From the NCBI GenBank assembly GCA_910574475.1, contig CAJTAT010000003.1:124001-188000 (forward strand): a DNA stretch of 64,000 bases, given 5' to 3'. Source of the DNA: Clostridia bacterium. GTDB lineage: Bacteria > Bacillota > Clostridia > Lachnospirales > Lachnospiraceae. Positions within the stretch are counted from its first letter, which is position 1. Each line of letters starts with the position of its first letter. Below, one piece after another: positions 8,867 to 58,629 of this stretch. A program made the translations under genes and the position numbers. The notes under the pieces are model-generated. The model saw nothing but the letters and a program-made list of their open reading frames with translations, ran no database searches and was not told the origin of the DNA.

Positions 8867-10321
8867 TCAGAATTGAAAATACACAAATTCATATTCGCCC
8901 AACTGACGGCTATAAAGGATGGAAAACAGTAACAAGAAATATATCACATATCGAACAGGCTTTTGATATCGTCCAAGCCAGTTCCAGATACTTATCTTCA
9001 GTTCCATTAGATCGTGGAACAGCATAATCAGAATAAAAAAACCAGTCAATAAAAGAGGTTTTAACCCAAATGTCTGTTCCAGACTTGCAGCCCGGAATGT
9101 CTCATATCCTGTAGCAAGGTAAGTTCTCGGATCCGCGATTCCAGAAAAGAGATGGGATACCACATATCCTGCGTCCGACAGGCTGTTTGCCCTGAAAAAA
9201 ATCCACGCAAAACAGACAAAAAGGAAGGTAAACAGTATCCTCACTCCATGCGTTCCCTCTTTTTTGGGTGGAAAATAATGATTCCACTCTTTTTCAATGA
9301 CCTGACCCAGACCATGAATCAGCCCCCAGACACAGTAAGTCCAATTGGCTCCATGCCAGAGACCGCTGCACAAAAAGGTGACGATCAGATTGAAACGGGT
9401 GCGCCAGGCTCCTTTTCGATTGCCACCCAGAGGAATGTATACATAATCCCGAAACCAGGTAGAAAGGGAAATATGCCATCTGCTCCAAAATTCTTTGATG
9501 GAGGCTGAAAAATAAGGACTTTTAAAATTGGTCATCAAGTCAATATCCAAAAGCTCTGCCACACCTACTGCAATATCAGAATACCCGGAAAAATCGCAGT
9601 AAATCTGAAATGCAAAAAGCAAGGTTGCAATCAGAAGCGGAAGTCCGGTAAAATGAGTCACCTGATTATAGACCACATCCACATAGATTGCAATGGAATC
9701 TGCAATGGCAATCTTCTTAAAAAATCCCCAGGCAATCATTTTTGCCCCATGGATAGCTTTATCTGAATGAAAGGTGTGTTCTCCCTCGATCTGAGGAAGC
9801 AGATTTCTGGTACGTTCAATGGGGCCAGCCACAAGCTGAGGAAAAAAGGCAATAAATGTGGCATACTTTCCAAAGTGGCGACATGCCTTCACCTCTCCCC
9901 GGTAAACATCGATCACATAGCTTAACGTCTGGAAGGTGTAGAAAGAGATCCCCACCGGAAGCATCAGTTTCAATGTCACATCCTGCACTGGGATTGCCAT
10001 TCTTTGCAGGCAGTGTGTCACAGTAGCGCTCAGAAAGTTAAAATATTTAAAGAAGAACAGTACTCCCAAGCTGATGATAAGGGCCACCAGCATACAGAGC
10101 TTCCGCTTTTTTTTACTTTCCGTGCGCTCCATCAGCAAAGCTGTCCCATAAGAGACGATTGTAGTCAGTAAAATAAGAACTACATACTTTACGTTCCAGC
10201 TCATATAAAAGTAATAGCTAGACAAGAACAGGATGCCCCAGCGGTATTTCTGGGGCATAATCCAATAGATTGTAAATACAATTGGCAAAAAAACATAGAA
10301 AGCATTGGAATTAAACAGCAT
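8867..10321 (-). CDS. MBOAT-family O-acyltransferase (copy 1)
   Basis: This 484-residue polytopic protein begins [20 protein letters not shown]. It has the MBOAT signatures [55 protein letters not shown] (conserved core split here for brevity) and [13 protein letters not shown] with the catalytic histidine. The family carries acyl groups across the membrane (AlgI, DltB, PatA). The start codon overlaps the end of icd by 11 bp, and the SGNH partner follows. The unusual neighbour suggests co-transcription with icd. Confidence 0.92.
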
Positions 10322-46070: not shown

Positions 46071-46289
46071 TTATGCATGCAATTCTAAATATTCCAATAT
46101 ATCTTCCACACACACAAATTTACTTAAATCTCTGTCTGAGATATCAATGTCAAAAGTCTCCTCAAACTCTGTAATGATTGACACCAAATCAAAGGATGAC
46201 AATTCCAAATCAGCCCTCAACTGTGACTTCTTAGTAATTTCTTTCACTTCCGTGTACCCTGCAAGAATCTTCTTTACTTGTTCAAACAT
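46071..46289 (-). CDS. Stand-alone acyl carrier protein of the NRPS cluster
   Basis: The start is fixed by GGAGGAGACAGAGA; its ATG overlaps the NRPS stop by eight bases (72 residues). The carrier motif is LRADLELSSFDLVSIITEFEE, cited here by its LSSF core; the second serine aligns with the phosphopantetheine serine of DSL motifs. It is acidic and short, like fatty acyl carrier proteins. It probably accepts an acyl group from the AMP-ligase and donates it to the first condensation domain (inference). Confidence 0.85.
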   Translation of the reverse strand: MFEQVKKILAGYTEVKEITKKSQLRADLELSSFDLVSIITEFEETFDIDISDRDLSKFVCVEDILEYLELHA

Positions 46290-49200
46290 TCTCTGTCTCC
46301 TCCAAATATCCAACTTTTTGAAAAAATGTCACATACTTTTTCAAATAATCCAAATCAATATCTGCCCATTCAAAGCCAAGCCTTTTTAAGTATTGAACGG
46401 TAAAATCATTTTCAATCTGTATCTTGCTGTCATAGATAATCCGATCATTGGAATCTAAATCATTGATAAAGGTTTCAAAAATAAATTCCATGCCTTCCTG
46501 CTCCGCAGTCTTTCGCAGTGCGTCTGTAAACCTTTCGCCACTGACTATTTTCAGAGGATATCCCAGTCTCTCAAAATAAGTGTCTAATCGATCCATATAG
46601 ACGACTTTCGGGCTATTAAGATGAAATACCGTCTGCTCTGTACTAAAATGCCTGGCAATGGTCATCAGAGCACTGGCTGCCTCATCCACAGGTGTGAATT
46701 CCAGATAAAGCTCCATCAAATAATCGGGGAACATTTTCATCTCTAAGACTGCCTTCACACGTTTCAAAAACGCATTGGTTTCATAATTCTTTTGGAACCA
46801 GCCATCCAAAAACCGATTGGTCAGATTTCCCATCCGCATAATATTGGCGCGCAAGCCCTGATGCATAGCCTTGAGTACTTCCCATTCTGCCTCAAATTTG
46901 CTTCGGGCATACACGTTTTCCAGAGACTGGCCTACATACAGATTATGCTCATAAAAATTGATATTTTCTGTGTTCACGTATCCGTCAAAATGATCTACAA
47001 AGCTGTTTCCTGATACACTGAGCGTGGAAATGTGAATGAGCTTCGCTTTTGCTTCAAAACAAAATTGAATCAAACCTTTTACAGATTCTACATTTGCCTC
47101 ATAGAAATATTGATAAGATCCGTAATGCTTGACACTGGCTGCCCCGTGAATCACAGTATCAACCTTTGACCACAATTCTTCATATTCCTGGTTCGACAGC
47201 CCGAATCTTTCTTCCTGCAAATCAGCACATAAAATCTTGATACGTCCGCAATATTGATACTTATCTTTAAAATAATAGCTGCAAAGATTCCAAAAACGAT
47301 CTTCACTCTCTTCCACATCTTTTCCCCGGACAAGACAGTATGCCGTTCCTCCATCATGCTCTAAAAAGTCTGCAAGAATATGAATTCCAAGAAAGCCTGT
47401 GGCCCCTGTCAACAAAATATTACCTATCTCTGACTTTTGAAAATTACTCACACATTCCATTTTATTTTTACTCAAAATAGGCTCTATATTTTTGAAATCC
47501 AAATCTGCAAAAGAAATCTCCAATTTATTTCCTGTCTCAATGCAGACGGCAAGCTTCTGTACGGTTGGATAGTCAAACACATTTTGTAAATCAAAATAAA
47601 TACCCTCATAATGAGCCATGGATACAAACTCAATTGCTTTCAGACTATCTCCACCCAGGTCAAAGAAATCATCATTGCGGCCCACAGGTACATAATCCAA
47701 CACTTGTTCTATGATTTCTGCCAGCTTTTTTTCTAACTGTCCCTGGGGACTTACATACTCTGTGGTGCTTTCCATACAGTCAAGGGCCACTTCCGGCAGT
47801 CCTTTCCGATTGAGCTTTCCGCTGGAGGTCAATGGCATTTCAGACAATCGTGTAAAAATATGCGGCATCATATAGCGTGGAAGCTTTTCTTGTATGTTTC
47901 TTTTAATATCTGCCAGGTCAACTGGTGTTGCTTCCGTGTAAAAAGCACAAATTACCTGCCGTCCATCTTCTTGTCTGCGCACTGCAACTACAGCCTGTAA
48001 CACACCACTGACGGAACAGATGGCACTTTCTATTTCTCCAAGCTCAATGCGAAGCCCACGAATCTTTACCTGAAAATCATTTCTTCCTACATAGACCAGA
48101 TTCCCGTCTTTTCGCCAGTAGGCCAGATCTCCTGTCCGGTACAGTTTTCCTTTTCCAAAGGGATTCTCTGGAAATCTTTCCTGGGTCATTTCTGGTTGAT
48201 TTAAGTATCCTGCCCCCACTCCGTCCCCGGCAATACAGAGTTCACCAGTGGTTCCTATGGGTGAAAGTCGCATATACTTGTCCACAATATAAATCTGGGT
48301 ATTTGCAATGGGTTTTCCAATGGTAATATCCTGTTCTGACTCCACTTCCCCGTTGGTTGACCAAACAGTGGTCTCCGTTGGTCCATAAATATTGAAAATG
48401 CGGGCCGGAGTAAGCTGCCGTAACTCAGAAATCAGAGAGCCGTCCACTGCCTCACCCCCAAGAATCAAGGCTTTTAAAGTCTTCAAATATTCGCAGGCAA
48501 GGGGATCCTGAATAAGAGACCGCATCTTTGTGGGCGTTGTCTGCATAACGTCAGCCGGCAATTTTTTTAACAGGGCATTTAATTCCGACTGCAATGTTGC
48601 CTGCTCCTCATTAGCAAATAAAATAGTCAGTCCATTTGCAAGGGGCAAAAGACTCTCGGTGACAAAAATGTCAAATCCAACTGTTGTTACAGAGAGGATT
48701 ATTTTATGATTGTTTTGAACTATTTTATGAACCACATTATTATTATTATTATTATTATTATTCACATAGTTCAAAACATTCCTGTGTGTCAACAATGTTC
48801 CTTTTGGTCTTCCTGTAGAGCCTGATGTGTAAATGCAATAACAAATCTCTTCTCCTGAAAAAACAATGTTTGGATCATCAATTTCGTTATTATTCAGCAA
48901 TTGGGAAAGGGTATCTTCTGTAACACACAATTTTGCATTGCTATCTTTAAGCATATAAGAAATTCGTTCCTTTGGATAGTTTGGATCCACAGGCAAATAA
49001 GCTGCGCCAGCTTTCAAAATTCCAATCATGACTGCTATCAGATGACTCTTTCTTGGCAGCATAAATGCCACAATATCTCCTGATACCACACCTTGCTCCA
49101 TCAGCCCATGAGCAATTCGGTTCGCCTGCTTATTTAGCTCTGCATAAGTGAGCACTCTGTCACAGGCTATAATTGCTGTCTGGTCTGGTATTTTCTGGGC

Positions 49201-50877
49201 TTGCTCTTCAAAGAGCATATGTACACCTTTATCTTTCAGATATTCCACTGCCGTATGATTAAAGGCGGAGCACAGCATGGCCTCTTCCTGTTTTGTGATT
49301 ACAGAAATATCTTTCAAAAGACATTCTTCATGTAACATCTCTTTCAGTACCAGCTTATAGCCCTCGAGAAAACGTCGTATCGTACTTTCCTGGTACAAAT
49401 CTGTACAATATTCTGCCAGGATTGTCACATTTTCTCTTCTAGGCATCAGGTAAAAGGTAAAATCATACTTTGAGGATGTTACTGGGACGGGCAGGATTCT
49501 GGCCTTTTCATCTCCAAAAACAATGTCTGTCATAGCCTCACTTTGATAAGCGAACATTACATCAAAAAGGGGATTTCGATCTGGTGTATTGACATTCAGT
49601 TTTTTAACTAGTGCGCTGTAGGAATAGTCTTCATGAGCCATGGCTTCTACAGAGGTTTCCTTCACCTCTGACAAAAACTCTTTTACTCTTTTTGTACCTA
49701 TGGGCCGATTTCGTAGTGCAACGGTATCGACAAACATACCAAGTGTATGTAAATATCTGCCCTGTCTCCCACTCATGGGCATGCCCACCACAATATCTTC
49801 ATTCCCTGAAAACTTGGACAGTAGAATATAAAAAGCGCCCATATAGAACATATAGGGAGTCATGTTCCAATTTTTGCATCTTGTAAGAATTTCATGGTGA
49901 AGGAGATGATCTATAGAATCATAAAGTCCGCTGCCCTGAAAGCTGCGTTTCTGTTTTCTCTTATAATCGGTATTTAATTCCAGCACTGGCGGCTCTTCTT
50001 TATAGACAGAGAGCCAATAGCTTTCACTCTCCTGGGCCTCTCTATTTTGCAAGGCGAATTGTCTGTAGGAAGCCAGGCTTCCTCTAAGTTCCCGTCCCAT
50101 ATAGACTTCATTGAGCTCTTTGACAAAGATAGAGATGGAGGTCCCATCTGTTATTATATGATGCATGTCAATGAAAACTGTATTTTCCCAGTAACCCACA
50201 CGCAAAAGGGGGGCTTTTGTCAAGTCAAAAGGCCGGATAAAAGCTGAAAAATCCTGGCTTGTAAGCTGTTCTAATTGAAATTCTACGTCTTTTTCCAGGA
50301 TCTGTAGGATGGTTCCATCTTTATTTTCAAACCGTGTGCGCAAGATCTCATGTCGCTCAATCAAAACCAGGATAGCTTTTTGAAGCCGGGCTACATCAAG
50401 AGACCGGGCTTGAAATACATAGGGCACATGATAGGCTGTGCTATCTTCTTGCATACTCTGCGCTGTATAAATGCGCATCTGTGCCTCTGTGGCAGGCACA
50501 TCGCCAGAGAAGTCATCTGCTTTCTCAACCATGTCCACAGCTTCTAGTATCTCTGCCAAGTCCTCTAAGGTATCACAGGAAAATATCTTCCTGGAATCTG
50601 TGCGATAGCCTGATTTTTCCAGAGAAGCCAGCAGTTCTATCGCCCTTAAGCTGTCTCCACCCAGATCAAAAAAATTGTCCAGAATACTAATTCTATCAAT
50701 TTCCAAAACTGTTTTAATGGATGCAATCAGAACTTGTTCCTGTATGGTTCTGGGAGCAAGATAATCTACAGAGACGGTAAGATCTGACGGTTCAATTTCT
50801 GGAAGTCCTCTGCGATCCACCTTTCCGCTGAATGTTAAAGGAAGGCTTTCAAGATATGTAAAGCTGTGAGGAACCAT
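46282..50877 (-). CDS. NRPS, second part: PCP1–C2–A2–PCP2–thioester reductase
   Basis: Frame of 1531 residues; the listed first Met has no ribosome binding site and lies inside module 1. In order: end of A1 (FSGKVDRRGLPE), PCP1 with LGGDSLRA (Ser76), C2 (about 120–540) with HHIITDG (239–245), A2 (about 560–1040) with YTSGSTGRPKG and IYGPTETTVW, PCP2 with LGGDSLKA (about 1073), and a reductase domain (about 1160–1531) with TGATGFLG, HISTLSVSGN and YARSK. The reductase should release the peptide as an aldehyde. A perfect (AAT)9 tract encodes Asn706–714 in A2. It continues the 50835 gene after a one-base frameshift. Confidence 0.9.
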   Translation of the reverse strand: MVPHSFTYLESLPLTFSGKVDRRGLPEIEPSDLTVSVDYLAPRTIQEQVLIASIKTVLEIDRISILDNFFDLGGDSLRAIELLASLEKSGYRTDSRKIFSCDTLEDLAEILEAVDMVEKADDFSGDVPATEAQMRIYTAQSMQEDSTAYHVPYVFQARSLDVARLQKAILVLIERHEILRTRFENKDGTILQILEKDVEFQLEQLTSQDFSAFIRPFDLTKAPLLRVGYWENTVFIDMHHIITDGTSISIFVKELNEVYMGRELRGSLASYRQFALQNREAQESESYWLSVYKEEPPVLELNTDYKRKQKRSFQGSGLYDSIDHLLHHEILTRCKNWNMTPYMFYMGAFYILLSKFSGNEDIVVGMPMSGRQGRYLHTLGMFVDTVALRNRPIGTKRVKEFLSEVKETSVEAMAHEDYSYSALVKKLNVNTPDRNPLFDVMFAYQSEAMTDIVFGDEKARILPVPVTSSKYDFTFYLMPRRENVTILAEYCTDLYQESTIRRFLEGYKLVLKEMLHEECLLKDISVITKQEEAMLCSAFNHTAVEYLKDKGVHMLFEEQAQKIPDQTAIIACDRVLTYAELNKQANRIAHGLMEQGVVSGDIVAFMLPRKSHLIAVMIGILKAGAAYLPVDPNYPKERISYMLKDSNAKLCVTEDTLSQLLNNNEIDDPNIVFSGEEICYCIYTSGSTGRPKGTLLTHRNVLNYVNNNNNNNNNVVHKIVQNNHKIILSVTTVGFDIFVTESLLPLANGLTILFANEEQATLQSELNALLKKLPADVMQTTPTKMRSLIQDPLACEYLKTLKALILGGEAVDGSLISELRQLTPARIFNIYGPTETTVWSTNGEVESEQDITIGKPIANTQIYIVDKYMRLSPIGTTGELCIAGDGVGAGYLNQPEMTQERFPENPFGKGKLYRTGDLAYWRKDGNLVYVGRNDFQVKIRGLRIELGEIESAICSVSGVLQAVVAVRRQEDGRQVICAFYTEATPVDLADIKRNIQEKLPRYMMPHIFTRLSEMPLTSSGKLNRKGLPEVALDCMESTTEYVSPQGQLEKKLAEIIEQVLDYVPVGRNDDFFDLGGDSLKAIEFVSMAHYEGIYFDLQNVFDYPTVQKLAVCIETGNKLEISFADLDFKNIEPILSKNKMECVSNFQKSEIGNILLTGATGFLGIHILADFLEHDGGTAYCLVRGKDVEESEDRFWNLCSYYFKDKYQYCGRIKILCADLQEERFGLSNQEYEELWSKVDTVIHGAASVKHYGSYQYFYEANVESVKGLIQFCFEAKAKLIHISTLSVSGNSFVDHFDGYVNTENINFYEHNLYVGQSLENVYARSKFEAEWEVLKAMHQGLRANIMRMGNLTNRFLDGWFQKNYETNAFLKRVKAVLEMKMFPDYLMELYLEFTPVDEAASALMTIARHFSTEQTVFHLNSPKVVYMDRLDTYFERLGYPLKIVSGERFTDALRKTAEQEGMEFIFETFINDLDSNDRIIYDSKIQIENDFTVQYLKRLGFEWADIDLDYLKKYVTFFQKVGYLEETENV
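48736..48762 (-). repeat. (AAT)9 microsatellite encoding nine asparagines
   Basis: Nine perfect ATT units on the plus strand read AAT codons in the NRPS. They lie just after the A3 core and before the A4 region. Triplet gain or loss would keep the frame and change the number of Asn residues. No other such tract was seen in the window. Confidence 0.95.
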
Positions 50878-53534
50878 GTATTTTGGAAGCTTTTTCCAAT
50901 TTGCGCCCTTATGTTTCCTGTTTCCATTCTTTCCCCTGTATAAAAGGCACAGATCATCTGTCGATTCTCCTGATTTTTGCGAACCACAACAACCGCCTGT
51001 GTAATCCCTTCCACACTGGCAATTACATTTTCAATCTCTTCAAGCTCCATGCGAAGTCCATGGACCTTTACCTGAAAATCATTTCTCCCCACATAGATGA
51101 GTCTCCCATCCTCTCGCCAGTAAGCCAGATCCCCGGTCTTGTAGAGCCTTCCCTCTCCAAATGGATTGTTTACAAATTTTTCATCCGTCAGTTCCGGCCG
51201 GTGTAAATACCCTGCTCCAACCCCCTCTCCAGCAATACAAAGTTCTCCGGGGACGCCCACGGGCACCGGTTGCAAGTAAGAATCTACTATATAAATCTGC
51301 GTATTTGCAATAGGCTGTCCAATAGTAATGTCCCCATCTTTGATTTCTCCAAAGCTGGCCCCCATAGTTGTCTCTGTAGGCCCATATCCATTAAAAATGA
51401 TTCCTTTTGTATACAAAGACAATGTTGCATATTGCTGTTCTGTAAATGCTTCCCCTGCCACCATAACAACTTTAACTTCTTTCATTCCTCTGGCAAATTC
51501 ATGCTGTCCAAGATACGCCAGTAGTTTTGTAGGAGTACAATATATAGCATCCACAGAATATTTAACTGCCAGTTTGCCAAGCCTGGCAGGATTTCTCATT
51601 TCCTCGTCTGTAGCCAGTAAAAGAGAGAGGCCATGCAAAAGAGAAGTGAAGATTTCTGTAGAAAAAATATCAAAAGAAATAGAGCCTATAGAAAGCAGGC
51701 ATTTGCAATGTTCCACTACTGTCTGATAGCATTGGTTATATTTGTTAGCCCTACAGTGATTGACTACATTTCTATGTGTAACCAGCGCGCCTTTGGGATT
51801 TCCTGTCGTGCCAGAGGTGTAGATACAGTAGCACAAATCATTACTTGTCATAACAACATCCGGCTGATGATTCTTGTCATAGTCCAAAAATTTTCCAATA
51901 TTTTTCTCTGTAAGGAAAAGTTTTGCGCCGCTGTCTGCCAACATATAATTTACCCGTTCCTGGGGATAATCCAGATCGATGGGCAGATATACACCGCCAG
52001 CCTTAAGGATTCCAAGTATCGTCACAAGTAAGCTGCTTTCTCTTGGCAGAGCAAAAGCAACAATGTCTCCTACGTTTATCCCCTGCCCAATCAATCCCTG
52101 TGCCACTTGATTGGCCTTATCATTCATTTCTTTGTAAGTCAAAATTTTATCACAGGCAATGACTGCCGTTTCCTGAGGAGTTCTTGCCGCCTGTGCCTCA
52201 AAAAGCTGATGGACGCACAGATCTTTAGGGTATTTAATCACTGTATCGTTAAAGTCCTGCAATACCAGTTTTTTCTCAGAAGTGGATAGCATTTCCAACT
52301 CATACAGTTTTTTCTCATCATTATCCATTGCATCAAAAAGCAAATTTTTTATGTGTCCATACAAACTTTCAATTTCTTGTTCTTTCAATTTTTCCGTCTG
52401 ATAATCACAGTGAATCCGAAGTACGCCTTCCCTGTCCCGATCCTCAATATGGATCTGTAGGCTCTCTGTCTGCGCCCCACTGTGATACCAGTTGCTTTCA
52501 AAGGCTCCCTCTGTACCTGTAATCGCTGCATTTTGATAGCTGAGTATCACATCATATAGTTTTTCTCCAAAGTTGTATTCCCGGCGGATATCTGTTAGCA
52601 TGTCAGCATAATTGTATTTTTGATGACGAATGATAGAAAATATCTCATTCTTAACAGAAGAGAGGTTTTCAGAAAAAGAGGCATGGTTATCCAATTTTAT
52701 CAGTAAGGGAATGGTATGAATGAACATCCCCATTGTATTTTTTTCTTTCACCCCTGTGCGATTCAGGATGGCTGTACCAATATAAAAGGTGTCCACATTC
52801 ATCTTAATACGGTTCATATACACGGCAAAAGCTGTCATAAACAGGGGAAAAACAGAGGTATTCTGCTTATCTGCATATGCAAATATGCGTCCTGAATCTG
52901 CCACATCCATCACAAAGGTTTTTCGGCAGGCTTTGATAGATGAGCTCTGTTTTTCAGACAGGTATATAGGTTCTTCACATTTTTTAAACTGTTCCAAAAA
53001 GAATGTCCTATCTTTGTCATAGCGAAGACTTTGCATATAATTGTCTTCGCTGGCAATATAGTGAAGATAAGAATAAGTCTTAGGTATCCTGCCATCTAAA
53101 AGGGCACAGAACTGAGAGCCCACCATAGAAAGTGTCCATGCATCTCCAATGATATGATGCATCTTCACAAGGATTCCATAACTGTCAGATAGCAAAACGA
53201 TCTTTATTTCACATAGAGGACCATAGAGCTCCAAAGGTTCTTTCGCGTATTTACTGGCATAAGCTTGAAAGTCTTTTTTCTCTGCAAATCGCAACACAGC
53301 TAATTTTTGCTCTGTATTAGGGACAACTTTCTGCATAGTCCCATTCTGGGTCTCCGCCATTTGAATTCTAAGGGCCTCATTCAATTCATACAGTTGGTGA
53401 ACTGCACGTTCAATCGCAGAAAGTTCTCTCTGTCCTTTCAGCATAATGCTGCCACAGATGACTGCAATGGAACCTCCTAAAAATTTTTCCATATCATAAA
53501 TTGATTTTTGTGGTTTTGTTAATCTGTACATCAT
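50835..53534 (-). CDS. NRPS, first part: C1–A1 (frameshifted at the end)
   Basis: Frame of 899 residues. C1 (about 1–430) has MHHIIGDAW (His126–127, Asp131), a condensation motif with Ala for the usual Gly. A1 (about 435–890) has YTSGTTGNPKG, GYGPTETT, YKTGDLAYW and VGRNDFQVKVHGLR. After AQIGK the frame turns to FQNTWFL and stops. Adding one A to the A-run at 50891–50895 gives GKKLPKYMVPHSFTY, the expected end of A1, joining the next frame. C1 likely accepts an acyl chain from the acyl carrier protein. AGAGGGG precedes the start. Confidence 0.88.
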   Translation of the reverse strand: MMYRLTKPQKSIYDMEKFLGGSIAVICGSIMLKGQRELSAIERAVHQLYELNEALRIQMAETQNGTMQKVVPNTEQKLAVLRFAEKKDFQAYASKYAKEPLELYGPLCEIKIVLLSDSYGILVKMHHIIGDAWTLSMVGSQFCALLDGRIPKTYSYLHYIASEDNYMQSLRYDKDRTFFLEQFKKCEEPIYLSEKQSSSIKACRKTFVMDVADSGRIFAYADKQNTSVFPLFMTAFAVYMNRIKMNVDTFYIGTAILNRTGVKEKNTMGMFIHTIPLLIKLDNHASFSENLSSVKNEIFSIIRHQKYNYADMLTDIRREYNFGEKLYDVILSYQNAAITGTEGAFESNWYHSGAQTESLQIHIEDRDREGVLRIHCDYQTEKLKEQEIESLYGHIKNLLFDAMDNDEKKLYELEMLSTSEKKLVLQDFNDTVIKYPKDLCVHQLFEAQAARTPQETAVIACDKILTYKEMNDKANQVAQGLIGQGINVGDIVAFALPRESSLLVTILGILKAGGVYLPIDLDYPQERVNYMLADSGAKLFLTEKNIGKFLDYDKNHQPDVVMTSNDLCYCIYTSGTTGNPKGALVTHRNVVNHCRANKYNQCYQTVVEHCKCLLSIGSISFDIFSTEIFTSLLHGLSLLLATDEEMRNPARLGKLAVKYSVDAIYCTPTKLLAYLGQHEFARGMKEVKVVMVAGEAFTEQQYATLSLYTKGIIFNGYGPTETTMGASFGEIKDGDITIGQPIANTQIYIVDSYLQPVPVGVPGELCIAGEGVGAGYLHRPELTDEKFVNNPFGEGRLYKTGDLAYWREDGRLIYVGRNDFQVKVHGLRMELEEIENVIASVEGITQAVVVVRKNQENRQMICAFYTGERMETGNIRAQIGKSFQNTWFLTALHILKAFL

Positions 53535-53539
53535 AGTTG

Positions 53540-54978
53540 TCAGCCCCTCTTAATTTTTTGCGTCGTTGTTTTTTCAAATGCAGTCTTCCTGAATTTTACT
53601 TCCTGAATCCTTTTATATCCAGGAAGTTCCCTGTTTATCCTCGCAATGTGATCTTGAATCCCTGTCTCATCTTCCGTAAAGATTTCTGCTGTAATCCTGT
53701 CATTTTCACCATAGACAATGACTTCCTGTACTTGTTCTATCTCTAATATCCTGGCTTCCAGTTCTTCAGCCGAAACATTTTTTCCATTGCTTAGAATAAT
53801 CAGATTCTTTTTATTTCCCCGTCGCGAATCTGAATCTCACAGCATGGCAGCGGAAGTCCCACACTTCCCTTCTTTGTATATTGATTGCGGTTGACTGCTA
53901 CCACAGGAGAGCACTCTGTAATTCCATAGCCATTGAGAACTTGTATTCCTATATCATCCATTCCATCTATGTACTTCTGTTCTAAGAAGGCTCCCCCACT
54001 CACAATCAATTCAAGATTTCCTCCAAACTGAGCGTGTATCGAATGGAAAAACTTTTTTCTTATATCTACTCCACATTTTCTCAGTGCATTGCTCAGAATT
54101 ATCAAGGCCTTTAAAAGCTTATCTTTCTTTTGTTCTTTTGCTGTTTTCCAAATTCCTTGATACATAGTCTCAACATAAAGAGGAACTAAGAACATATTTC
54201 GAGGTTGAAATATGTTCAGATCGGTAAGGAATGAACGCAAACTTTTATTGATACAGATTGGTTTCCCATAAAGAAGCATGACTAAAATATTGGCTGTAAA
54301 TGCAAAGGTGTGATGGAGAGGCAAAGTAAGCATAGACGCGCCTGCTATCCATACGTTTTGACAGGAAGCAACTGTATCAATCATCAGATTTTTTTGAGTC
54401 AACATAACCCCTTTGGGAATTCCTGTGGTTCCAGATGTAAATATAATAGAGCAGACAGCATCTTCATCCACCTCTCCTGCCTGGGTATCACACACGCCTT
54501 TAGCAAGCAGTTCCCTTCCACGTTCCAAAAAAGAGGCAAATTCTTTCATATTATAAATCTGGGAAACCGTCTCTGTTTCAGTCATTTTCTTTGCCGTATC
54601 TGTATAGGAATCTGCATATACAAGCGCTTCTGCCCCACATCGTACCAGCAGCAAACGAATCTCTTCATCCGATAATTCTTTGTCAATAGGAATGATAATA
54701 TTAGAACCCAATACTACTGTAAAATAGGTAAGAATCCAGGAGTAGCTATTTTCTCCAAGTACAGCTATCTTTGCCTTTTTCAATCCCTGGTGATAAAAAA
54801 AAGCTTTTAAAGCTTCTATCTCCTGCTGAAATTGCTGGTAGGTGATTGTTTTGATTGTTTTATTTTTGTCCAGGTATTGGAAAGCTGTTTTTTGAGGATT
54901 ATTTTCAGATTGAAAAGAGATAAGTTGTTTTAAATTTGAAATAGGGGGATGGTTGTATAGAGGATAATTTTGCATCAT
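53540..54978 (-). pseudogene. Acyl-AMP ligase (long-chain acyl-CoA synthetase-like) with internal out-of-frame deletion
   Basis: The first 392 residues (53800–54978) include FTSGTTGIPKGVML (A3) and GYGITECSPVVAV (A5), ending IRDGEIKRI and a stop. Another frame then runs on (53540–53805) with KKNLIILSNGKNVSAEELEA, GENDRITAEIF and TTTQKIKRG, the expected C-terminal subdomain with its lysine. The connecting piece of about 45 residues, including the GWFKTGD-type motif and hinge, is missing. A GGAAAT at the junction could be microhomology. The intact enzyme would adenylate a fatty or aromatic acid for the acyl carrier protein. Confidence 0.85.
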
Positions 54979-55028
54979 CGATTCCTTCCTTTCACGTTAT
55001 TCCCACATAATCATTAACTCATTTCTAA

Positions 55029-55057
55029 ATTTTAACATTACGTTTTACGAATTTCAA
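55029..55057 (-). promoter_or_regulatory. Promoter for the NRPS operon
   Basis: TTGAAA–17 bp–TAAAAT on the minus strand, about 50 bp before the AMP-ligase start. It faces the XRE gene and lies about 30 bp from the 15-bp palindrome. Confidence 0.75.
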
Positions 55058-55085
55058 GTATTTTTATCGCTATAAGAGAATATAT

Positions 55086-55100
55086 TAATCCATTGGATTA
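55086..55100. promoter_or_regulatory. 15-bp palindrome, candidate XRE operator
   Basis: TAATCCATTGGATTA has perfect 7-bp halves around a central T. It lies between the divergent AMP-ligase and XRE genes. Partial half-sites (TTCCATTG; AATCCATTA) follow toward the XRE start and overlap a weak promoter for that gene. Binding by the adjacent XRE protein is inferred from position. Confidence 0.6.
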
Positions 55101-55155
55101 TTCCATTGTTCAAAGAAATCCATTAAAATGAGAACTATAAAAGGAGGGTTCAATT

Positions 55156-55506
55156 TTGACGAGCGACAGAATTGAAATTGGTAAGCGCATCCGTAATTTC
55201 AGAATCAATAACAGCTTAACCCAGGCACAATTTGCAGAAAGTTTGAATGTCTCTACCAATTTTATTTCTGAAATAGAAACGGGGAAAAAGAATATTTCCC
55301 AAGATACCTTATGTCGTATTTGTGAACACTATCATCTCTCGGCAGATTATTTGTTGTTTGGGAAAACAGTTTCTTCAACATCTGCCCACACTCTTTCTGA
55401 TTTTCTCTCTTCTCTCTCATTGGAAGATATTCCAACAGTCATTGATTATTTAGAAGCAATGATGAGAATCAAAAAATTGGATATGAAAAATTCTATAAAG
55501 CAATAG
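55156..55506 (+). CDS. XRE-family transcriptional regulator
   Basis: TTG start with AAGGAGG 8 bp upstream (116 residues). The XRE HTH covers about residues 8–62: LTQAQFAESLNVSTNFISEIETGKK. The helical C-terminal region (LSDFLSSLSLEDIPTVIDYLEAMM) may mediate dimerisation. Divergent orientation and the palindrome suggest control of the NRPS operon and of itself. Apart from a promoter and two small hairpins, the 290 bp downstream holds no gene. Confidence 0.9.
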   Translation: MTSDRIEIGKRIRNFRINNSLTQAQFAESLNVSTNFISEIETGKKNISQDTLCRICEHYHLSADYLLFGKTVSSTSAHTLSDFLSSLSLEDIPTVIDYLEAMMRIKKLDMKNSIKQ

Positions 55507-55739: not shown

Positions 55740-55796
55740 ATATGATAGTTATATCACTCTACACGAATGATAAAGTTGAGTAAGGGAGAAGTTTTC

Positions 55797-57284
55797 ATGC
55801 TGTTTAACTCAATTGACTTTTTATTTTTCTTCCCTGTCGTGGTTAGCATTTATTTTTTTATTCCCCGGAAAATGCGATATATCTGGCTTCTTATCTCCAG
55901 CTACTATTTTTACATGAGCTGGAATCCCAAATACGCATTGCTTATGGGCCTTTCCACTATTATCACCTTCGTAAGCGGTCTGCTTATTGAAGCTTGTAAT
56001 CAATCGACAGATCCCCAAAGGGAGCTACACAAAAAAATATGTGTTGCCGGAAGCCTGATCAGTAACCTTTTGATCTTAGGCGTATTTAAGTATGCAAATT
56101 TTATTCTGGACAACTTAAGCGGCGTTCTGTCAGCTCTTGGACTGGGAACCATAGAGAGAAGGCTTGATTTTCTGCTGCCTGTGGGAATTTCTTTCTATAC
56201 TTTTCAAGCTTTAAGCTACACGCTGGATGTATATCAGGGAAAAATAAAGGCGGAAAAAAATATAATCCGTTATGGACTGTTTGTCTCCTTCTTCCCCCAA
56301 CTAGTGGCGGGACCCATTGAGCGCTCTAAAAACCTTCTGGGTCAGATTCAAAAGATTGAAACTATAAATGTGTGGAATTATGAACGAATTTGCAATGGAG
56401 CTCTTCTGATGTTCTGGGGACTTTTCCAAAAGCTTGTCATTGCCGACCGGGCAGCCATTCTTGTAAAGCAGGTGTATGGCAACCCTTATTCCTATGGTTT
56501 TTTTGAAATATCCATTGCCACAGTACTCTTTGCCTTTCAGATCTACTGTGACTTTGGCGGCTACAGTTGTATTGCCCGAGGGGCAGCACAGGTTATGGGC
56601 TTTCAGCTTATGCAGAATTTCAGACAGCCTTATTTGGCTACCACCGTCAAAGACTTCTGGAGGCGATGGCATATATCTCTGACCTCCTGGTTCACGGATT
56701 ACCTTTATATTCCTCTGGGTGGAAACAGAAAGGGATTCTTGAGAAAATATTGGAATATCCTGGTGGTATTCGCTGTCAGCGGCTTATGGCATGGTGCTCG
56801 CTGGAATTTTGTTGCATGGGGGCTTCTCCATGCCTTCTACCAGATATCAGGAGATATCTATGGAAGAATCAAAAAGCGTTTTATGCCTCCCACCTCTCCA
56901 CAGAGAGACTTATCTTTAAGTGCCAGAATCCGAAAAGTCCTGTTCACCTTTTTGCTTGTTGATTTTGCCTGGATTTTCTTTGTAGTAAACGGGTTCCGGG
57001 ATGCGATTGTCATTCTAAGGCAAATGGTTTCTGTCTGGAAAACCACTCCATTTTTTAACCTTGGACTGGACATGGGGAATTGGATCGTCTTAATAGTGGC
57101 AATCCTGATATTATTTATCACAGACCTTCTGCATGAGAGGAAGCTCTCCATCTTTTTAGCCGTAGGCCGCCAGGAAATCTGGTTTCGCTGGATCTTATAC
57201 CTGGGGCTGATATGGAGTATTATCATGCTTGGAATATATGGAATTGACTACGATTCCAGCCAATTTATTTATTTTCAGTTTTGA
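55797..57284 (+). CDS. MBOAT-family O-acyltransferase (copy 2)
   Basis: The start at MLFNSIDFLFFFPVVVS is chosen by homology to copy 1 and AAGGGAGAAG upstream (495 residues). Signatures are [46 protein letters not shown] and LWHGARWNFVAWG with the catalytic His. It is followed 13 bp later by an SGNH-domain gene. The pair probably transfers acyl groups to an extracellular polymer. Copy 1 at 8867 is on the other strand and clearly diverged. Confidence 0.92.
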   Translation: MLFNSIDFLFFFPVVVSIYFFIPRKMRYIWLLISSYYFYMSWNPKYALLMGLSTIITFVSGLLIEACNQSTDPQRELHKKICVAGSLISNLLILGVFKYANFILDNLSGVLSALGLGTIERRLDFLLPVGISFYTFQALSYTLDVYQGKIKAEKNIIRYGLFVSFFPQLVAGPIERSKNLLGQIQKIETINVWNYERICNGALLMFWGLFQKLVIADRAAILVKQVYGNPYSYGFFEISIATVLFAFQIYCDFGGYSCIARGAAQVMGFQLMQNFRQPYLATTVKDFWRRWHISLTSWFTDYLYIPLGGNRKGFLRKYWNILVVFAVSGLWHGARWNFVAWGLLHAFYQISGDIYGRIKKRFMPPTSPQRDLSLSARIRKVLFTFLLVDFAWIFFVVNGFRDAIVILRQMVSVWKTTPFFNLGLDMGNWIVLIVAILILFITDLLHERKLSIFLAVGRQEIWFRWILYLGLIWSIIMLGIYGIDYDSSQFIYFQF

Positions 57285-57297
57285 GGGGAATACTGAT

Positions 57298-58629
57298 ATG
57301 CGTAAATTTAAAATTTTTATGAAAGTTGTATGTTTTGGCATGCTATGTTTACTGTGTGGAAAATTATTCCGTTATTTGCTAATTGATGACACGGCCTCCT
57401 ACACCCGTATTATGATGCACGAGCTTTATCACATGGAGTCCAATATTGACGTCCTGTTTGTAGGATCTTCCCACTGCTACATCTCTTTCGTACCACAGAT
57501 TGCAGATGAAATCTTACAGAAAAATACCTTTAATGCCGGCTCTGCCTCCCAACAGTTAGACGGTTCTCTGGCTGTCATGAAAGAAGCCGTCAAATACCAT
57601 GACATTGAACGGATCTATCTGGATGTTTATTACAATATTGCTCTGAAAGATCCCTATAAAGAACGCTCCGATCTGACAGATACTTATATCCTCTCTGACT
57701 ATACAAAACCTTCCTTACATAAAATAGATTACTTATTAAGCGCCAGCTCCAAAGAATATTATGTCAATAGCTTTATTCTGGCCAGAAGAAATTGGAAGAA
57801 ACTTTTTGACCCTGAATATATCTCCGAAGTCTGCGAAAAAAAGGCAGATGATGGTTATCAGGACTACGATTATGAATATGTAGCCACTGACAATGAAACC
57901 TACATGGGAAAAGGTTATGTGGCCAACCGCTCCGTCATGACAGAGGGCGCTTACTGGATATCAAATCCCTTTCCATCCATCAATGAGGACACCATGTCAG
58001 ATGACTGGAAAAATTCCCTGTCAGAAATCATAGACTTTTGCCATGATCAGGAAATCGAATTAATCCTGGTGTCAACTCCCATGCCCAACTTCCGCTTAAA
58101 ATGTGTGGGCAACTATGACGATTATATTACTTATATTAATGAATTTATTGAGGGAACCGACGTAAAATATTACGACTTTAATCTGTGCAGAGAAACTTAT
58201 ATTCCTCATCACGACGGAGCCTTTGCAGACAATAACCATTTGAACTGCTACAGTGCAGAAATATTTACAGAAGTCTTCTCAAAATTTTTTGCAGGACAAA
58301 TCTCAGAGGAAGAGCTCTTCTATGATTCCTATGAAGAAAAACTCCAGCATCTTCCAGAGGATGTCTACGGCATTGTTGTAGAGGAAAACAAAGAAAATTA
58401 TTTCATCACCATAACCCCCGTCTCCACTGCCCCCCTGGACGAAATCACCTGCCAAGTCATCCGAAAGCCGGACAATGGAACCCCCATAGAAGCTCCAAAC
58501 GCAGAGCCCTTAACAGAAATCCCCTATCCAGAAGGAGAACACGGCACCTTTGAAATCATCACTTATCTGGAAGGAGAAGAGGTGAATCACGTATTTGTGG
58601 AGTATGGGATGGAAGATAAAGTCGCATAA
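57298..58629 (+). CDS. SGNH-like membrane-anchored protein paired with MBOAT (copy 2)
   Basis: The start at 57298 follows GAGGGG and overlaps no coding sequence (443 residues). One N-terminal helix (about 8–28) is followed by VLFVGSSHCYISF (GxSS, nucleophile serine). AFADNNHLNCYSAEIF near residue 320 gives the DxxH pair. A C-terminal region of about 90 acidic residues (PLDEITCQVIRKP; HGTFEIITYLEGEE) forms an extra beta-type domain not found in copy 1. Likely role: extracytoplasmic transfer of the acyl group delivered by the MBOAT partner. Confidence 0.78.
   Translation: MRKFKIFMKVVCFGMLCLLCGKLFRYLLIDDTASYTRIMMHELYHMESNIDVLFVGSSHCYISFVPQIADEILQKNTFNAGSASQQLDGSLAVMKEAVKYHDIERIYLDVYYNIALKDPYKERSDLTDTYILSDYTKPSLHKIDYLLSASSKEYYVNSFILARRNWKKLFDPEYISEVCEKKADDGYQDYDYEYVATDNETYMGKGYVANRSVMTEGAYWISNPFPSINEDTMSDDWKNSLSEIIDFCHDQEIELILVSTPMPNFRLKCVGNYDDYITYINEFIEGTDVKYYDFNLCRETYIPHHDGAFADNNHLNCYSAEIFTEVFSKFFAGQISEEELFYDSYEEKLQHLPEDVYGIVVEENKENYFITITPVSTAPLDEITCQVIRKPDNGTPIEAPNAEPLTEIPYPEGEHGTFEIITYLEGEEVNHVFVEYGMEDKVA

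What the first reader, a model, noticed from the sequence alone, without database searches (positions are those of the whole stretch)
46071..55506. NRPS–reductase cluster predicted to make an N-acyl dipeptide aldehyde
The genes seen are an acyl-AMP ligase, NRPS C-A-PCP-C-A-PCP-R, a stand-alone acyl carrier protein and a divergent XRE regulator. From family knowledge, a terminal reductase with its SDR triad (HISTLS, YARSK) releases peptides as aldehydes, and related gut-Clostridia clusters give protease-inhibiting aldehydes and pyrazinones. The combination with an AMP-ligase and separate carrier protein suggests an N-terminal acyl group. The specific product of this cluster is not known to me.
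Basis: partly seen in the sequence, partly recalled or inferred. Interest (0 to 1): 0.75.

Follow-up and report, generated by a model that had tools for sequence, protein, structure and literature searches.

The report
Broken N-acyl dipeptide aldehyde cluster
This is a member of a known family of bacterial gene clusters that make fatty-acid-capped two-amino-acid aldehydes (protease blockers), but in this genome two of its key genes read as broken, so it is more likely a recent fossil than a working pathway.

Summary
N-acyl dipeptide aldehyde is the best reading of the ancestral cluster: the first C domain groups with other starter C domains, ligase and ACP travel together, and four same-family genomes (G076, G095, G015, G354) carry C-A-T-C-A-T-R with ligase and ACP. 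Against the intact G076 orthologue, the NRPS changes frame inside the first A domain (50.94-50.91 kb), and the ligase lacks about 44 codons, including its TGD motif, and then changes frame (about 53.81 kb). Only one other of 16 genomes held for the genus has the cluster (G301); there most of the NRPS is deleted and ligase and ACP carry stops. The pieces shared with G301 show purifying selection (dN/dS 0.05-0.14), so the decay looks late. Assembly error is not excluded. The chemistry class is known (passages of PMC8518294 and PMC12327764). Ordinary, with a modest twist.

The parts
53800..54978 (-). acyl-AMP ligase, N-terminal part, open as 392 aa
   Evidence: PF00501 191 bits; matches residues 2-381 of the 517-aa G076 ligase at 57%
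53546..53818 (-). ligase C-terminal remnant in another frame; about 44 codons (382-425 of the G076 ligase, with HTGD at 409) missing before it
   Evidence: matches residues 426-516 of the G076 ligase at 53%; motif positions
50835..53534 (-). NRPS ORF 1: starter C1 and most of A1
   Evidence: PF00668 183 bits, PF00501 257 bits; matches 1-862 of the 2420-aa G076 NRPS at 54%
46282..50877 (-). NRPS ORF 2: end of A1, T1, C2, A2, T2, R
   Evidence: PF00668 274, PF00501 266, PF00550, PF07993 163 bits; matches 873-2420 of the G076 NRPS at 53%, in another frame from ORF 1
50910..50937 (-). frame break inside A1
   Evidence: edges of the two G076 matches
46071..46313 (-). stand-alone acyl carrier protein, intact; the first ATG in frame is codon 9 (46289), which overlaps the NRPS end
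   Evidence: PF00550 34 bits; carrier Ser aligned in 11 of 11 ACPs incl. window
55156..55506 (+). divergent XRE-type regulator; link to the cluster rests on position only
   Evidence: PF01381 47 bits

Best explanation
An N-acyl dipeptide aldehyde cluster that is decaying into pseudogenes. Ancestral mechanism: the ligase activates a fatty acid and loads it on the stand-alone ACP; the starter C domain joins the acyl chain to amino acid 1 on T1; C2 joins amino acid 2 on T2; the R domain reduces the T2 thioester and releases an aldehyde that would trap serine, cysteine or threonine proteases. In this genome the ligase has lost the stretch with its TGD motif and then its frame, and a frame change in A1 cuts C1-A1 from the rest. 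Shown: gene content, domain order, the breaks, an intact orthologue, intact distant relatives of the same layout, a more decayed relative in the genus. Inferred: activity of the ancestor, acyl chain, amino acids, and the lack of product here.
For: Domains. Breaks against intact G076. Layout C-A-T-C-A-T-R plus ligase plus ACP in G076, G095, G015, G354. Window C1 groups with first C domains of other loci at 100/100. Ligase and ACP together in 8 of 11 ligase loci fetched. G301 remnant with stops and a large deletion. dN/dS 0.124 (T2-R), 0.053 (ACP), 0.137 (ligase piece). R closest solved relatives are NRPS/thioester reductases. One PPTase of 216 aa in the genome.
Against: The genome is a 56-contig draft, and no reads could be checked. 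The ACP and the R domain are open and not visibly damaged. The two window lesions lie in stretches that G301 has lost, so it cannot be told whether any damage is shared. Substrates cannot be fixed. L072 has a first C domain of the same clade but no ligase match in its 19.5 kb.
Confidence: 0.72

Rival explanations
1. The cluster works: both breaks are assembly or sequencing errors, and the strain makes an N-acyl dipeptide aldehyde.
For: 56-contig draft; R and ACP intact; purifying selection on the shared pieces.
Against: A loss of about 44 codons in the ligase is not a typical base-calling error; a second genome of the genus has a wrecked cluster.
Confidence: 0.15
2. The NRPS is still made, as two overlapping ORFs or by ribosomal or transcriptional recoding at an A-rich run near the switch, and another acyl source replaces the lost ligase.
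For: The two NRPS ORFs overlap (50835-50877) and ORF 2 is otherwise open; the ACP is open.
Against: G076 reads through in one frame; the break lies inside the A domain, not at a domain border; no recoding signal was shown; no replacement ligase was identified.
Confidence: 0.1
3. Ligase and ACP belong with the neighbouring MBOAT/SGNH genes (55767-58629) in a cell-surface acylation system, not with the NRPS.
For: The MBOAT scores 158 bits against DltB, below its cut-off of 375; in L032 an A-domain gene sits beside MBOAT and SGNH homologues.
Against: They lie on the other strand beyond the XRE gene; G076 keeps ligase-NRPS-ACP with no MBOAT match in 19.5 kb; the window ACP overlaps the NRPS end.
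Confidence: 0.03

Closest known systems
Clostridium cluster BGC0001686 (N-octanoyl-Met-Phe-H and a longer-chain analogue; passages of PMC8518294)
   Same: Acylated dipeptide aldehyde class from an NRPS cluster
   Different: Its sequence was not held here, so identity and layout were not compared; the window copy is broken and its amino acids are unknown
Ruminopeptin (rup) cluster of Ruminococcus bromii (passages of PMC12327764 and PMC8518294)
   Same: Class: dipeptide aldehyde, described as N-acylated Leu-Glu
   Different: Sequence not compared; intact and characterised in vitro
Unnamed G076 cluster (L017)
   Same: Same genes and order of ligase, NRPS and ACP; 46-57% identity by domain
   Different: Intact; an extra A-domain gene follows the ACP; A2 pocket residues differ
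Aureusimine synthetase AusA (A-T-C-A-T-R, pyrazinones)
   Same: Dimodular with a homologous R domain (4f6c)
   Different: Window has a starter C, ligase and ACP; scores 1012 and 383 bits against a cut-off of 2500

Membership tests
N-acyl dipeptide aldehyde NRPS cluster | two modules in the order C-A-T-C-A-T ending in R | tested here: met
   domain order, though split over two frames
N-acyl dipeptide aldehyde NRPS cluster | NRPS readable as one protein | tested here: not met
   two ORFs in different frames; G076 orthologue is one 2420-aa ORF
N-acyl dipeptide aldehyde NRPS cluster | starter-type first C domain | tested here: met
   100/100 clade with the first C domains of L017, L020 and L072 in a 16-row tree; no characterised starter C was in the tree
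N-acyl dipeptide aldehyde NRPS cluster | complete acyl-AMP ligase | tested here: not met
   about 44 codons missing and frame changed
N-acyl dipeptide aldehyde NRPS cluster | stand-alone ACP with carrier serine | tested here: met
N-acyl dipeptide aldehyde NRPS cluster | R domain with SDR nucleotide motif and S/T-Y-K residues | tested here: met
   TGATGFLG, HISTLS, YARSK in the translation and aligned to 6vtj; roles of the residues recalled
N-acyl dipeptide aldehyde NRPS cluster | product is an N-acyl dipeptide aldehyde | not testable with these tools
   needs chemistry
Aureusimine synthetase AusA | NF047350 score at or above 2500 bits | tested here: not met
   1012 and 383 bits for the two ORFs, searched apart

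The most novel reading that the evidence does not exclude
The broken state is not simple death: in this genus the cluster is being remodelled, the NRPS is still made (split or recoded), the ligase is dropped, and acyl groups come from elsewhere, so that a different N-acyl dipeptide aldehyde is made.
Probability: 0.07. Interest if true: 0.5.

Novelty: new member of a known kind. Interest (0 to 1): 0.25.

Why it matters
Acylated dipeptide aldehydes inhibit proteases and can induce ER stress in gut epithelial cells (passages of PMC8518294). Genome-mining counts of such clusters may include dead copies like this one, so the presence of the domains is not evidence of production. The window and G301 show a cluster of this kind at two stages of loss in one genus after a period of selection.

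Tried and rejected
A-domain specificity: pocket residues read by eye on the stretches printed, with GrsA positions recalled from memory, give DITYMAGMG for window A1 and DITQIGIVW for window A2 (DLSFLAGMG and DCLFIGLIC for G076 A1 and A2). A2 looks a little like a recalled glycine code, but the second A domain of LgrA (aligned; its glycine specificity is recalled) shares few of these positions, so I assign no amino acids.

Recoding at the NRPS break: nothing beyond an A-rich run near the switch; kept as a rival. Promoter scan: 29 sites found, 28.0 expected, uninformative. tRNA and Rfam (gathering) scans of the window: nothing. The order search found G602 (L104): starter C-A-T-R, ligase, ACP on a 5.5-kb contig, R 55-57% identical, contig cut inside the C domain. 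Paper searches covered open-licence PubMed Central papers only; 'dipeptide aldehyde' with NRPS, gut, reductase and Clostridia gave 0 papers, Lachnospiraceae with biosynthetic gene cluster, pseudogene and nonribosomal gave 0. No structure prediction was run.

The odds now given were set at this filing; I have no earlier well-formed values to compare.

Full report
OBSERVATION. The minus strand of 46.07-54.98 kb encodes, in order of transcription, an AMP-binding ligase, NRPS domains C-A-T-C-A-T-R and a stand-alone ACP; an XRE-type gene diverges at 55156-55506. Scores are far above Pfam cut-offs. The held assembly (94.9% complete) has two condensation-domain matches, both in this NRPS, and one ACPS-family (PPTase) match, in a 216-aa ORF, Sfp-like by length.

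As sequenced the NRPS is not one gene. ORF 50835-53534 holds C1 and most of A1; ORF 46282-50877 holds the end of A1 and the rest. The orthologue in G076 (same family) is a single 2420-aa ORF; its residues 1-862 match the window at 53531-50937 in one frame and 873-2420 at 50910-46285 in another. The ligase is broken too: residues 2-381 of the 517-aa G076 ligase match 54981-53812, residues 426-516 match 53818-53546 in another frame, so about 44 codons are missing. In G076 that stretch holds HTGD at 409, the A7 motif in the usual naming (recalled). Intact copies therefore exist in relatives; the window copy reads as broken in two of its three biosynthetic genes. The ACP and the R domain are open.

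RELATIVES IN THE GENUS. Of 16 genomes held for the genus, only the window's own and G301 match with NRPS ORF 2 (E 1e-60) and with R (E 1e-90; 16 genus members are in its list). A ligase query at E 1e-30 gave 8 of 16, but 6 of these are 33-34% matches over about 260 residues, i.e. other ligases. An NRPS ORF 1 query at E 1e-20 gave 5 of 16: own, and 4 that match the A domain only; G301 has no match. In G301 a ligase fragment with a stop and a frame change is joined to T2-R, the C-A-T-C-A part is gone, and the ACP has a stop just before the carrier serine. These G301 lesions are not in the window. The two window lesions lie in stretches that G301 has lost, so it cannot be told whether decay began before the two split. 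An elongation-factor-like gene and a penicillin-binding-protein gene lie near the cluster in both genomes (window 32.2-34.4 and 62.4-64.0 kb; L038 4.1-6.2 and 6.5-8.1 kb), which fits common descent, though the gene order differs.

SELECTION. Between window and G301, dN/dS (Nei-Gojobori with Jukes-Cantor, own script) is 0.124 for T2-R (505 codons), 0.053 for ACP (78), 0.137 for the ligase piece (329) and 0.02 for the EF-G-like gene (690); PBP synonymous sites were saturated. dS values of 1.3-2.7 make these rough. The shared pieces thus carry mostly the mark of selection, which suggests late decay.

FAMILY CONTEXT. R-domain matches at E 1e-40 occur in 40 of 397 sampled family genomes. I laid out 23 loci (22 of the 43 places outside G000, and G301); ligase and ACP both lie beside R in 4 of 23 (L017, L020, L038, L071), and 3 more (L079, L081, L089) have a weak ligase match of 28-31%, probably part of an A-T-R enzyme; several loci are cut by contig ends. 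Three further places, chosen afterwards because G095 and G015 had shown ligase and ACP (G354 is from G015's genus), each show C-A-T-C-A-T-R or its parts with ligase and ACP a few kb after R: L105 (G095; T domains not matched), L106 (G015), L107 (G354), at 26-38% identity. Of 11 ligase loci fetched, 8 hold the ACP and L018, L019 and L021 do not; the 12th ligase match (G089) shows no ACP in L079. Window C1 groups with L017 C1 and the C domains of L020 and L072 at 100/100 in a 16-row tree. In the HHxxxD motif window C1 reads HHIIGDA; L020 and L072 lack the first His. L072 has no ligase match in its 19.5 kb, against a strict link of this C type with the ligase.

MECHANISM. Inferred from family knowledge: ligase plus ACP supplies an acyl chain, starter C acylates amino acid 1, C2 extends with amino acid 2, R releases an aldehyde. 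Acylated dipeptide aldehydes from Clostridium and Ruminococcus NRPS clusters are known (passages of PMC8518294 and PMC12327764). Dipeptide aldehyde clusters are reported among the commonest matched clusters of Lachnospiraceae, with Blautia named (passages of PMC11170972 and PMC10039858).

VERDICT. Parts list right; product class right for the ancestor; present function probably lost, with assembly error as the main rival. New member of a known kind, in decay.

Noticed in passing
window 48736-48762: Nine perfect copies of a 3-base repeat (ATT on the + strand) encode nine Asn in A2, in the stretch between the A3 and A4 motifs. G076 has no such run there. Copy number could vary without a frame change.
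   Followed up: partly
window 55767-58629: MBOAT acyltransferase (DltB-like, under the DltB cut-off) followed by a 466-aa protein without Pfam or NCBIfam match; in L032 homologues of both sit beside an A-domain gene. A second MBOAT gene lies at 8867-10321.
   Followed up: partly
L104 (G602:C59:1-5523): A genome of another family of the order has starter C-A-T-R, ligase and ACP, which if single-module would make an N-acyl amino aldehyde; the contig ends inside the C domain.
   Followed up: partly
L017:4986-6461: In G076 an extra 491-aa A-domain gene lies directly after the ACP, followed by 205-aa and 412-aa ORFs; role unknown, no such gene directly after the window ACP.
   Followed up: no
L038:9071-10705: In G301 the deletion leaves an open 544-aa ORF that joins a ligase fragment to T2-R; chance remnant or new fusion not tested.
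   Followed up: no
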